NCBI RefSeq assembly: GCF_001655675.1
Contig: NZ_LYRP01000007.1
Location: 1 to 64,000, forward strand
From: Mangrovibacter phragmitis
GTDB taxonomy: Bacteria; Pseudomonadota; Gammaproteobacteria; Enterobacterales; Enterobacteriaceae
Direction: 5' to 3'
Length of the DNA stretch: 64,000 nt
The notes beneath the pieces are model-generated. The model saw only the letters and a program-made list of their open reading frames with translations. It did not search any database and was not told where the DNA came from. Positions 1-61,245 of the stretch are shown here, one piece after another. The position numbers and the translations under genes were made by a program. The stretch's first letter is position 1. Every line of letters starts with the position of its first letter.

Positions 1-211
1 GGACATTCGGCTTACCCCGGCGGCCTGTTCGGGTACCGCTCCGAGTCGGCTTCCTGCCTCCCGTCGCTCTGCCTGCGTCCTGCAGGCAGCCCCGGCCCGC
101 CAGGCACGCCTCAACGATTTAGAGGCCACACCCCACACCCGCCTGTCATATCTCAGCAAAAATCAAAGAAAACAGACAACGCATAAATCCAACAGCCACA
201 CCTGACAACAC

Positions 212-237
212 AAAAAACCCCGCTACTTGCAGCGAGG
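212..237 (-). terminator. Minus-strand intrinsic terminator in repeat copy A
   Basis: On the minus strand, CCTCGCT and AGCGGGG pair around loop GCAAGT and are followed by six T. One pair is a G-U wobble that would be a C-A mismatch if transcribed from the plus strand, so the structure works on the minus strand only. It would end transcripts coming from the LacI-type gene at 561-1511. Confidence 0.6.
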
Positions 238-251
238 CCTGTATCGCGTAA

Positions 252-386
252 GACCGGTGAACCGCAGAAAGGAAGACAAGGTTATTCCGCCCGGATGGCG
301 GAATAAGGCGAACCGAGGCATGGACGCCGAGTCGAGCCGGCCGCAGGCTGACTGCCCGGAGGTGAACGCAGTGCGCAGCACCGGTC
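252..386 (-). ncRNA. Conserved structured core of repeat copy A (candidate RNA)
   Basis: The segment opens with GACCGGTG and closes with CACCGGTC, an exact 8-bp inverted repeat. Inside is a perfect 10-bp hairpin, TTATTCCGCC/GGCGGAATAA at 282-306 with loop CGGAT, plus short helices AGCC/GGCT and ACTGC/GCAGT. It is nearly identical to 7154-7287 and 40361-40495, while flanking parts of the element diverge more. The pattern fits a folded RNA or a DNA cruciform site. Expression is not shown by sequence alone. Confidence 0.45.
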
Positions 387-407
387 GCCAGCGAAAACGG
401 GGATTGC

Positions 408-426
408 AAAGGGGGCGAGCCCCCTT
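408..426. other. G/C-rich hairpin in repeat copy A
   Basis: AAGGGGG and CCCCCTT pair around a short CGAG loop. The equivalent hairpin in one unit of copy B (7306-7329) has a different but still perfect stem, which argues that pairing is maintained. Confidence 0.6.
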
Positions 427-560
427 AGCCCGTTCACTGGCTGTGAAGCCACATTAGCCCCATCACTTCAGGTGAACGGAACTTTCACCACACTGGAAGT
501 GAATGGAAACAGCGACACATTACACTAAGCAAAGTGAACCGCCCCCCACCACACTTATTC

Positions 561-7114: not shown

Positions 7115-7140
7115 AAAAAGCCCCGCTACTTGCAGCGGGG
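7115..7140 (-). terminator. Minus-strand intrinsic terminator in repeat copy B
   Basis: On the minus strand, CCCCGCT and AGCGGGG pair perfectly around GCAAGT and are followed by C and five T. It would end read-through from ghxP about 500 nt behind the stop codon. Confidence 0.55.
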
Positions 7141-7153
7141 ACAGTTCGCGTAA

Positions 7154-7287
7154 GACCGGTGAACCGCAGAAAGGAAGACAAGGTTATTCCGCCCGGATGG
7201 CGGAATAAGGCGAACCGAGGCAGGACGCCGAGTCGAGCCGGCCGCAGGCTGACTGCCCGGAGGTGAACGCAGTGCGCAGCACCGGTC
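7154..7287 (-). ncRNA. Conserved structured core of repeat copy B (candidate RNA)
   Basis: The same 8-bp closing repeat GACCGGTG/CACCGGTC and 10-bp internal hairpin as in copy A, with a one-base deletion near 7222 relative to copies A and C. The paired segments are unchanged. Confidence 0.45.
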
Positions 7288-7305
7288 GCCCGCGAAAAAC
7301 CGGAT

Positions 7306-7430: not shown

Positions 7431-7641
7431 AAATAACCACCCCCGGTGAGCATACTATACTGCACCGGTTGCCCGCGAAAACGAGGATTGCAAAGGGGGC
7501 GAGCCCCCTTTAGCCCGTTCACTGGCTGTGCAGCCACATTAGCCACCCGACTTCAAGTGAACGGAAATAAGCACCCCCGGTGAGCGTACTACACTGCACC
7601 GGTCGCCCGCGAAAACGGGGATTGCAAAGGGGGCAAGCCCC
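7431..7641. repeat. Tandem 134-bp duplication of the element's right end
   Basis: The segment beginning AAATAACCACCCCCGGTGAG at 7431 returns at 7565 as AAATAAGCACCCCCGGTGAG. Each unit contains CACCGGT, CGCGAAAACG and the G/C hairpin (7492-7511 and 7627-7643). The second hairpin overlaps the ghxP stop codon. Confidence 0.75.
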
Positions 7642-10191: not shown

Positions 10192-10330
10192 ATGTCGGGG
10201 TATACCGGTACCTGAAAGCACAGGCTGTAAGGGGCTCCGATGTCGGGGGAAACCCTCCTGCCCAATGCGGGATAGAGCGAAAGACAACCGGCAAAACGAA
10301 AGCGCCAGTAATGGCGCTTTCGTCGTTATT
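10192..10330 (+). ncRNA. sraL: Probable SraL (RyjA) small RNA
   Basis: In E. coli and Salmonella the roughly 140-nt sRNA SraL is encoded opposite the 3' end of soxR. Here the same place has a good promoter, a G/C-rich conserved-looking body with repeated GATGTCGGGG at about 10191 and 10239, and a strong hairpin at 10296-10323. The predicted length, about 140 nt, agrees. In Salmonella SraL targets the trigger factor mRNA. I assign it by position, size and structure, not by alignment. Confidence 0.65.
10296..10323. terminator. Terminator shared by soxR and the sRNA
   Basis: ACGAAAGCGCC and GGCGCTTTCGT form an 11-bp stem with loop AGTAAT. On the minus strand, behind soxR, it is followed by TTTTGCC. 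The plus strand also has T-rich sequence behind the stem. Confidence 0.7.
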
Positions 10331-39949: not shown

Positions 39950-40321
39950 TTAGCAGGTTGTTCCGCTCAGGGAACAGCACATGTACCATCCCGAGGTAAC
40001 CTTTTGTAGTAGAGCCAGCCATACCTGGTAGGTTACATATTCTGCCACTGTAAAATGCTCTGCCAGCACAGAGCAAATTGCGCGCCGTGTCAGCCACACT
40101 GCTTTTTCTCACCTGCTGCGCCCGGCGCCCGCAGGGGGCACTGGCCCCACCCCCTTTTGTGGCCGGCAAAATCGCCGCTACGCGGACATTCGGCTTACCC
40201 CGGCCCGCCAGGCACGCCTCAACGATTTAGAGGCCACCCAAACCCACCCGTTTGTAAGCCAGCAGCAAAAAATAAATAAAGACATACCGGGTACAAATCC
40301 TCCAGCCACACCAGACAACAC

Positions 40322-40347
40322 AAAAAGCCCCGCCACTTGCAGCGAGG
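40322..40347 (-). terminator. Minus-strand intrinsic terminator in repeat copy C
   Basis: On the minus strand CCTCGCT and GGCGGGG pair with two G-U wobbles around GCAAGT and are followed by C and five T. It would end dinF read-through transcripts. Confidence 0.55.
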
Positions 40348-40360
40348 CCGGTTCGCGTAA

Positions 40361-40495
40361 GACCGGTGAACCGCAGAAAGGAAGACAAGGTTATTCCGCC
40401 CGGATGGCGGAATAAGGCGAACCGAGGCATGGATGCCGAGTCGAGCCGGCCGCAGGCTGACTGCCCGGAGGTGAACGCAGTGCGCAGCACCGGTC
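40361..40495 (-). ncRNA. Conserved structured core of repeat copy C (candidate RNA)
   Basis: It has the same GACCGGTG/CACCGGTC closing repeat and 10-bp internal hairpin as copy A, with the same 135-nt length. Only scattered differences are seen, for example GGATGCC for GGACGCC. Confidence 0.45.
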
Positions 40496-40516
40496 GCCCG
40501 CGAAAAAGGGGATTGC

Positions 40517-60871: not shown

Positions 60872-61192
60872 AACAATTTCCCTTCACTAAATGAATGGAG
60901 ATTTACCTGAAAACTTTTCAGGCGCGATCGAGTATACACAACAACCCGGTGTGATTTGGCTCACAGCGAATATCCCAATGGGTTTTCAGAAAAGATGAAG
61001 ATATAAAGAATTCCAGTGCAAGGATTAATTGTTAGATGATTTAAAATCAAATAGTTACATTTACATAATCAAATTAAATAATCCGTTTTGTCTGAAAAGA
61101 AAGGCTGAGGGTAATAATAACTCAAACGATTTTCAGAATAACCTTACTCACAGTTATTGGTTGAGTGTATTTTTTCACAGATTTATCTTATA
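60872..61192. other. Gap between yjbE and pgi
   Basis: An AT-rich gap of about 320 bases that must hold the yjbE promoter. I found no convincing RcsB box and no small gene. Confidence 0.5.
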
Positions 61193-61221
61193 AAAAATGC
61201 CGGTATAAAACCGGCATTTTT
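61193..61221 (-). terminator. pgi terminator
   Basis: AAAAATGCCGG and CCGGCATTTTT form an 11-bp stem with a 7-nt loop and A/T runs in both arms. Confidence 0.9.
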
Positions 61222-61245
61222 AAATATATAGCGAAACTTAATAAA

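What the first reader, a model, noticed from the sequence alone, without database searches (positions are those of the whole stretch)
252..386. 135-nt core closed by an exact inverted repeat looks like a folded RNA
All three copies (252-386, 7154-7287, 40361-40495) begin GACCGGTG and end CACCGGTC, enclose a perfect 10-bp hairpin and several short helices, and are better conserved than the rest of the element. On the minus strand the core lies between the upstream gene's stop codon and a terminator, as in a 3'UTR-derived small RNA.
Basis: partly seen in the sequence, partly recalled or inferred. Interest (0 to 1): 0.75.

Follow-up and report, generated by a model that had tools for sequence, protein, structure and literature searches.

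The report
GGA-hairpin repeat, relative of TRIP1
This 135-base core is one arm of a widespread family of palindromic intergenic repeats in gut-type bacteria, related to the E. coli TRIP1 repeats, whose two conserved GGA-loop hairpins look like docking sites for the RNA-binding regulator CsrA, although no transcript or binding has been shown.

Summary
The core has 31 copies in this Mangrovibacter-type genome, 25 in tandem arrays, and is better conserved than the rest of the element. Diverged relatives give strong covariation: 21 of 30 pairs change on both sides; 0 of 500 shuffles reach the score. The folded strand is +. It holds a hairpin pair related to Rfam TwoAYGGAY (RF01731, CsrB's clan), below the cut-off here, above it in relatives. 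A model built here finds it in 59 of 198 family genomes and inside E. coli TRIP1c. The element is two such arms pointing outward. Loops keep GGA in 24 and 23 of 24 aligned cores while stems change, as expected of CsrA sites. Against a pure RNA reading, G-U pairs are as rare as A-C (24 and 23 of 3165), whereas RNase P and CsrB have 12% and 9% G-U: the stems may be kept at DNA level. The proposed minus-strand 3'UTR sRNA is not supported: its terminator is confined to part of the genus, and the structure belongs to the + strand.

The parts
   Evidence: R1 145.2 bits
282..306 (+). copy 1, hairpin P2 (10 bp, loop CGGAT)
   Evidence: covariation
307..338 (+). copy 1, hairpin P3 with two tandem G-A steps, loop ATGGAC
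   Evidence: RF01731 match 283-340, 32.6 bits, cut-off 43
371..381 (+). copy 1, small hairpin P4 GTGC-GCA-GCAC
252..256 (+). copy 1, 5' side of closing helix P1 (partner 382-386)
1..125 (-). copy 1, left arm: diverged module on the opposite strand, cut by the contig end
   Evidence: R1 25.9 bits, E 2.5e-4
215..240 (-). copy 1, minus-strand terminator-like site in the centre of the element
   Evidence: consensus match; present in M. plantisponsor L042, not in M. yixingensis L041
408..426 (.). copy 1, G-rich hairpin AAAGGGGGC..GCCCCCTT outside the core
   Evidence: sequence; similar hairpins in relatives
430..479 (.). copy 1, element end: inverted repeat CCGTTCAC...GTGAACGG
   Evidence: sequence; same ends in relatives
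7148..7294 (+). copy 2, right-arm module (P2 7184-7208, P3 7209-7239)
   Evidence: R1 146.1 bits; RF01731 27.3 bits
6933..7027 (-). copy 2, degenerate left arm
   Evidence: R1 18.6 bits, E 0.31, weak
7121..7140 (-). copy 2, minus-strand terminator-like site
7445..7641 (+). two truncated element ends repeated after copy 2
   Evidence: direct repeats; blast matches 7462-7566 and 7579-7641
40355..40502 (+). copy 3, right-arm module (P2 40391-40415, P3 40416-40447)
   Evidence: R1 146.5 bits; RF01731 33.1 bits
40061..40600 (.). copy 3, approximate extent of the whole element
   Evidence: windowed identity over 31 copies falls after about 40600; the left edge lies at or before 40061, where the scan began; blast of the stretch begins at about 40046-40060
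40326..40349 (-). copy 3, minus-strand terminator-like site

Best explanation
The core is the right arm of a Mangrovibacter member of a family of two-armed palindromic intergenic repeats of Enterobacterales that includes the E. coli TRIP1 repeats. Each arm carries a TwoAYGGAY-like pair of hairpins with GGA in the loop. Shown here: the repeat family, the two outward arms, the covarying + strand structure, the near-invariant GGA loops and the relation to RF01731 and TRIP1. Inferred: when read-through or local transcription makes the + strand of an arm, the two hairpins dock CsrA, so that the copies act as dispersed CsrA-binding sites, either as decoys or as marks at the 3' ends of neighbouring transcripts. 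Confidence in the identity part is about 0.9. The figure below is for the whole statement, CsrA binding included.
For: Covariation: 21 of 30 pairs with both-side changes, score 0.343 against 0.131 shuffled and 0.01-0.07 slid, in a MAFFT alignment of 24 cores not fitted to the structure. The same holds on 111 distinct sequences fitted to the model (0.531 against 0.137). RF01731 matches at E<=1 in the whole own genome are 31 (all 122 first-look candidates scored), and they are exactly the 31 cores. Over the cut-off: L045, 49.2 bits, and 15 of 198 family genomes. Clan CL00106 also holds CsrB. The two tandem G-A steps that a paper gives as characteristic of TwoAYGGAY (PMC4333381, passage) are present here. 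GGA is in the P2 loop of 24 of 24 and the P3 loop of 23 of 24 aligned cores, and of 110 and 100 of 111 model matches (the model's own consensus has GGA, so these lean that way). Typical loops are CAGGGATG, CATGGATG and CAGGACG, while many stem pairs take three or four types. The published CsrA consensus is ruACArGGAugu with GGA in a loop (PMC5694010, passage). Host CsrB and one csrA are present. Core divergence within and between species is 1.9-3.6%, against 12-21% just outside it. TRIP1c of K-12 holds an R1 match of 78.8 bits.
Against: G-U is as rare as A-C in the stems (24 and 23 of 3165 cells). Folded by one and the same procedure, the element alignment has 1.6% G-U and 0.3% A-C, RNase P 12.2% and 0.7%, CsrB 8.8% and 1.3%; RNA-level selection is therefore not shown. 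No promoter-like site was found in the three window copies. Orientation of the right-arm GGA strand relative to neighbouring genes is mixed in this genome. At the yohP-dusC site it is opposite in two E. coli records (K-12 minus by R1; STEC411 plus by a weak RF01731 match, 27.7 bits, E 0.7). None of the 31 own cores reaches the RF01731 cut-off. The P2 loop of the window copies is CGGAT, not AYGGAY. No binding or expression data were available.
Confidence: 0.42

Rival explanations
1. DNA-level palindrome. The arms are kept as Watson-Crick inverted repeats because the element acts, or is copied and repaired, as a DNA hairpin or cruciform (a MITE-like dispersed repeat). RNA structure is a by-product, and the GGA loops are a recognition feature of an unknown protein acting on single-stranded DNA.
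For: G-U no commoner than A-C and five- to eight-fold rarer than in two RNAs of the same and related genomes. The small hairpin P4 has a GNA three-base loop in 91 of 99 three-base loops; GNA loops are recalled, from no call, as unusually stable in DNA. Two outward arms and inverted-repeat ends. Many copies, varying between genomes. TRIP1 is reported to mediate rearrangements (PMC10888264, abstract and passages).
Against: GGA is near-invariant in loops whose other bases vary, and this matches the CsrA consensus. Core positions outside the stems are also conserved within the genus. No linked Y1 transposase: 7 of 17 element-bearing genomes examined have none. In the small samples where G-U and A-C differ, G-U leads: own-genome P1 helix 9 of 31 with G-U or U-G against 1 of 31 with A-C, alignment A1 under RNAalifold 10 against 2 cells (RNAalifold favours G-U).
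Confidence: 0.35
2. 3'-end element: the arms act as bidirectional transcription barriers or mRNA-stabilising hairpins between convergent genes, without a specific protein partner.
For: By my ORF or 9 of 14 sites with both flanks seen lie between convergent genes, 4 between same-direction genes and none clearly between divergent genes. The Klebsiella variicola copy is also convergent. There are stable hairpins on either strand and a minus-strand terminator-like site in the window copies. The antisense of P2 itself scores as terminator-like in the window copies and in L041, L042 and L045.
Against: A barrier needs neither near-invariant GGA loops nor tandem G-A steps. The terminator in the centre is not conserved. 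Avoidance of promoters would give the same location bias.
Confidence: 0.13
3. One reading: a minus-strand sRNA cut from the 3'UTR of the neighbouring gene and ending at the terminator at about 212.
For: In the three window copies a gene on the minus strand ends before the core and a minus-strand terminator-like site follows it. The site is kept in M. plantisponsor L042.
Against: The minus strand turns the tandem G-A steps into pyrimidine mismatches and folds less well in 61 of 64 relatives. The terminator is absent in two M. yixingensis elements. At one site the gene that runs into the element is on the other strand (L224).
Confidence: 0.07

Closest known systems
TRIP1 repeats of Escherichia coli (Rudd 1999, not read, known to me through Li et al. 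2024, PMC10888264)
   Same: GC-rich intergenic repeats downstream of genes, predicted to fold. Model R1 hits lie inside TRIP1c of K-12 (78.8 bits) and in the putP-efeU repeat of strain D10 (72.7 bits), with the same order of P2, P3, P4.
   Different: No match by blastn of window 230-520 to 5,426 E. coli genomes. No R1 match at E<=0.001 at the K-12 putP locus (L118), where TRIP1b is described as a partial form. TRIP1 is 146-273 bp with up to five copies. Here the element is about 550 bp, two-armed, 31 copies, mostly in tandem arrays. CsrA occurs 0 times in the text of Li et al..
TwoAYGGAY RNA, Rfam RF01731 (Weinberg 2010; proposed as CsrA-binding by Gardner and Eldai 2015)
   Same: Two adjacent GGA-loop hairpins, the second with two tandem G-A steps. 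In the own genome the model finds the 31 cores and nothing else at E<=1.
   Different: Below the family cut-off in the own genome (best 33.5 bits, cut-off 43). The first loop is CGGAT. The passages read do not describe the family as an interspersed repeat; Rfam types it as cis-regulatory.
CsrB/RsmB (RF00018)
   Same: Hairpins with CAGGATG-like loops; same Rfam clan.
   Different: A single gene of about 350 bases with more GGA motifs (6.0 against 3.4 per 100 bases) and 9% G-U pairs. The own genome has a separate CsrB.

Membership tests
TwoAYGGAY RF01731 | score at or above the gathering cut-off (43 bits) | tested here: not met
   0 of 31 own cores reach it; relatives do, for example L045 49.2 bits, L156 45.3 bits, and 15 of 198 family genomes
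TwoAYGGAY RF01731 | two adjacent hairpins with AYGGAY terminal loops | tested here: inconclusive
   copy 1: P3 loop ATGGAC fits, P2 loop CGGAT lacks the A
TwoAYGGAY RF01731 | two tandem G-A steps in one stem | tested here: met
   columns 70-71/94-95 and 75-76/89-90 of A1; feature named in PMC4333381
TRIP1 repeats | sequence similarity detectable by blastn to TRIP1 | tested here: not met
   window 230-520 has no match in E. coli genomes at E<=1e-5
TRIP1 repeats | homologous by a sequence-and-structure profile | tested here: met
   R1, built from no named E. coli record, hits TRIP1c at 78.8 bits, E 3e-18
TRIP1 repeats | intergenic location next to gene 3' ends | tested here: met
   13 of 14 sites by my ORF calls, one ambiguous; K. 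variicola
CsrB/CsrC/Rsm sRNA (CsrA sponge) | match to the CsrB model | tested here: not met
   the only CsrB match at E<=0.001 in the own genome is at C49:20961-21308 (103 of 138 candidates scored)
CsrB/CsrC/Rsm sRNA (CsrA sponge) | binds and sequesters CsrA | not testable with these tools
   needs binding or CLIP data
CsrB/CsrC/Rsm sRNA (CsrA sponge) | own promoter and terminator on the GGA strand | tested here: not met
   no promoter-like site and no + strand terminator-like site in the three window copies; consensus scans only
REP/RAYT-mobilised palindromes | a Y1 transposase (RAYT) in genomes that carry the repeat | tested here: not met
   7 of 17 element-bearing genomes have no PF01797 match at E<=0.001

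The most novel reading that the evidence does not exclude
A dispersed family of palindromic repeats, present in nearly all E. coli as TRIP1 and in about 30% of the genomes sampled from the host's family, is a genome-wide set of CsrA-binding hairpins: a repeat-encoded arm of the Csr system that grows and shrinks by tandem duplication, linking repeat copy number to global carbon-storage control. Equally bold: the Rfam family TwoAYGGAY is not an ordinary RNA gene but the hairpin module of this mobile palindrome.
Probability: 0.3. Interest if true: 0.8.

Novelty: new variant of a known kind. Interest (0 to 1): 0.58.

Why it matters
Three things that stand apart in the papers and databases searched are joined here: an unexplained E. 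coli repeat (TRIP1), an unexplained Rfam family (TwoAYGGAY) and a conspicuous high-copy repeat of Mangrovibacter. If the GGA hairpins bind CsrA, interspersed repeats, usually treated as inert, would carry a regulator's binding sites across many genera, and this can be checked in existing E. coli CLIP-seq data. If they do not, the family is a strong example of covariation that mimics an RNA but is kept in DNA, a caution for covariation-based RNA discovery: the stems covary strongly with hardly any G-U.

Tried and rejected
Rfam at gathering threshold found only sraL and STnc430 in the window. Viral contigs (exact 21-mer) and phages (blastn): no match. Plasmids: 1, 3 and 11 records for three queries; the two looked at carry chromosomal-type genes. 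A link to RAYT or IS200-type transposases was tested and not found. AaHKsRNA22 (RF02902) appeared as a weak match in one relative and did not appear in the eight further loci scanned next. A hairpin-extension script meant to compare G-U with A-C gave 42 against 39 for CsrB itself and 14 against 11 for the element; I judged that it runs past the real stems and set it aside, and used RNAalifold on alignments instead. In that comparison the antisense of A1 folds with more G-U (33 cells) but a poorer energy. An empty site was looked for between Mangrovibacter species; I saw none: the sites that could be matched were occupied, several with differing copy numbers, so recent transposition is not shown. 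Concerted evolution as the reason for core conservation: core identity within the own genome (97.3%) is about that between species (own against the other two 96.4-97.5%; 11 and 9 copies of those), so it is not needed.

Rows dropped or capped: A2 was reduced from 136 to 111 distinct rows, and the fold comparison to 64 of 102 long rows below 0.9 similarity. One search was given 79 of the loci then held. A3 used 10 and A4 used 18 of the loci returned. In some searches only 15 and 21 candidates per genome were scored, 150 of 1016. The E. coli query includes flanking intergenic bases, so its count is an upper bound for the repeat. Gene context rests on my own codon-usage ORF script. Site L219 would be divergent if a 72-aa ORF is real, and L222 is convergent only if an overlapping 278-aa ORF is not.

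Full report
WHAT IS THERE. The window is the start of contig C7 of a 4.94-Mb genome. An exact 21-base match in the named-genome collection occurs in 12 stretches, all of Mangrovibacter plantisponsor and M. yixingensis, so the host is a Mangrovibacter or very close to one. The own genome has 31 full cores on five contigs. 25 of 31 lie within 1.3 kb of another, with 411-1197 bases between starts, mostly 660-690. In 20-base windows over the 31 copies the core is 0.93-1.00 identical and the rest of the element 0.44-0.94. Core identity is 97.3% within the genome and 96.4% to M. yixingensis, against 83.5% and 81.4% for the next 110 bases. Something therefore holds the core constant.

ARCHITECTURE. 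The left half of the element, read on the opposite strand, is a diverged copy of the right half. nhmmer and the covariance model both find the module on the other strand beside the main one, in the own genome (13 left arms at E<=0.001 and one at 0.31) and in other genera. The element is thus two arms pointing outward from a variable centre. In copy 1 and in relatives a G-rich hairpin follows the right arm, and the right end, in some relatives both ends, shows an inverted repeat CCGTTCAC...GTGAACGG.

STRUCTURE. Relatives with 69-78% identity over most or all of the core exist in other genera. On a MAFFT alignment of 24 cores (A1) the structure P1-P4 has 87% of cells paired, 21 of 30 pairs with changes on both sides and covariation 0.343, against 0.131 in shuffles (0 of 500 as high) and 0.014-0.069 when slid. 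On 111 distinct matches of model R1 it is 0.531 against 0.137 (that alignment is fitted to the structure). In their place is the small hairpin P4, whose GTGC/GCAC form is replaced by CCGC/GCGG in eight of 24 sequences. P3 contains two tandem G-A steps that are Watson-Crick pairs in some genera. The + strand folds better than the - strand in 61 of 64 (RNA parameters) and 58 of 64 (DNA parameters) non-redundant relatives.

RELATION TO KNOWN FAMILIES. The + strand matches Rfam RF01731, TwoAYGGAY, over model positions 49-109 of 168. In copy 1 the score is 32.6 bits, below the cut-off of 43. In the whole own genome all 31 matches at E<=1 are the 31 cores, and no other place matches. Relatives exceed the cut-off: L045 at 49.2 bits, 15 of 198 genomes of the family, and a relative in another family of the order, L156 at 45.3 bits. 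CsrB is in the same Rfam clan, CL00106. Gardner and Eldai (PMC4333381; the one passage that names the family) proposed from motif matches that TwoAYGGAY binds CsrA and mention its two tandem G-A steps. Weinberg 2010 (PMC2864571, one table row) lists it as probably an RNA and probably not cis-regulatory. Model R1 finds the module in 59 of 198 family genomes (48 of 154 genera) and 15 of 148 genomes across the order. Both sets include genomes used to build the model, and few candidates per genome were scored. With an element of an unnamed relative (G029) as query, 5188 of 5426 E. coli genomes have a match. With the E. coli yohP-dusC intergenic stretch it is 5375 of 5426, but that query includes flanking bases. 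In K-12 the R1 match at 2229222-2229369 lies inside TRIP1c, 2229122-2229394, as given by Li et al. 2024 (PMC10888264, abstract and passages). The K-12 putP locus gave no R1 match at E<=0.001; Li et al. describe TRIP1b there as a partial form. Li et al. report TRIP1 in 96% of E. coli genomes and a role in rearrangements. CsrA is not mentioned in their text (0 occurrences). None of my searches found a paper that joins TRIP1 with CsrA or TwoAYGGAY (four of five terms, no paper, listings only; PMC open-licence papers only).

THE LOOPS. GGA is in the P2 loop of 24 of 24 and the P3 loop of 23 of 24 aligned cores, and in 110 and 100 of 111 model matches, a count that leans towards the model's own consensus. 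The bases on either side of GGA vary, while many stem pairs take three or four types. The CsrA consensus quoted by Potts 2017 (PMC5694010, passage), ruACArGGAugu with GGA in the loop of a stem, reads almost like the P3 loops ACAGGGATGT and ACAGGACGT. CsrB hairpins of the same and related genomes have loops such as CAGGATG. One csrA and one CsrB are in the own genome. This is the reason for the CsrA reading. It is inference: no binding was tested.

THE COUNTER-EVIDENCE. In an RNA, G-U pairs should be far commoner than A-C. Here they are equal over the fixed structure: 24 and 23 of 3165 cells (P1 6 and 1, P2 4 and 9, P3 13 and 13, P4 1 and 0). Folded by one and the same procedure, RNase P of the same and related genomes has 12.2% G-U and 0.7% A-C, CsrB 8.8% and 1.3%, and the element alignment A1 1.6% and 0.3% (10 and 2 cells). 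The stems thus look kept as Watson-Crick palindromes, as selection on a DNA hairpin or correction between the arms of a palindrome would give. The P4 loop is GNA in 91 of 99 three-base loops; I recall GNA as a stable loop in DNA, from no call. Within the own genome the P1 helix shows a G-U or U-G in 9 of 31 and an A-C in 1 of 31, a small sign the other way among closely related copies. DNA upkeep and RNA use can both be true.

CONTEXT. By my ORF calls, 8 or 9 of 14 sites with both flanks visible lie between convergent genes, 4 between same-direction genes and none clearly between divergent ones; one site (L219) is ambiguous. One site lies between rcsB and a convergent 845-aa ORF; rcsB is by family match, and I take the ORF for rcsC from the gene order, which no call tested. 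The K. variicola copy is between convergent genes. The right-arm GGA strand is not fixed relative to the neighbouring gene: it is antisense to the gene that runs into it at L215, L216 and L221, sense at L224, and opposite in two E. coli records at the same site (the former match is weak). This speaks against a strict cis role. Sites are shared between Mangrovibacter species while copy number differs at several, so growth seems to have been by tandem duplication at old sites.

THE MINUS-STRAND IDEA. The terminator-like sites are there in all three window copies and in one M. plantisponsor element. The centre of the element is not conserved between genera and lacks the site in M. yixingensis L041, by eye in L034, and in L048 and L045 of other genera. 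The features that covary belong to the + strand. I give this reading 0.07.

VERDICT. A real, conserved, folded module, correctly spotted. It is one arm of a TRIP1-like palindromic repeat carrying TwoAYGGAY-like GGA hairpins. By the Rfam cut-off the own copies are not filed as TwoAYGGAY; they are related to it. CsrA docking is the best single mechanism (0.42 for the full statement), and a DNA-level palindrome is a close rival (0.35).

Noticed in passing
window 10194-10326: sraL sRNA (RF01408, 87.8 bits) on the + strand.
   Followed up: no
window 61068-61228: STnc430 sRNA (RF02053, 49.3 bits, just over its cut-off of 47) on the + strand.
   Followed up: no
window 7445-7641: Two extra truncated element ends repeated head to tail after copy 2, 134 bases apart.
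   Followed up: partly
window 1 (contig C7 start) and contig C6 start: Both contigs begin inside the element, on opposite strands, so the assembly probably breaks at a repeat array there.
   Followed up: partly
L217 2584-4463: Three tandem copies lie between rcsB and a convergent 845-aa ORF that may be rcsC.
   Followed up: partly
L149, L151, L155, L156: Small genomes of another family of the order (label f8) keep the same P2-P3-P4 layout with more AT-rich stems and GGA loops.
   Followed up: partly
L086 1611-2069, L106 1614-1760: The centre between the arms holds simple repeats (AAACTTC and TTTGTC units) in some genera.
   Followed up: no
L056 2261-2439: A C4 antisense RNA (over its cut-off) with c4-a1b1 and isrK matches just below theirs lies near two elements of opposite orientation in G030, which suggests a prophage region.
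   Followed up: no
window 282-306 and relatives: The antisense of hairpin P2 followed by CCTTGTCTTC scores as terminator-like in several copies.
   Followed up: no
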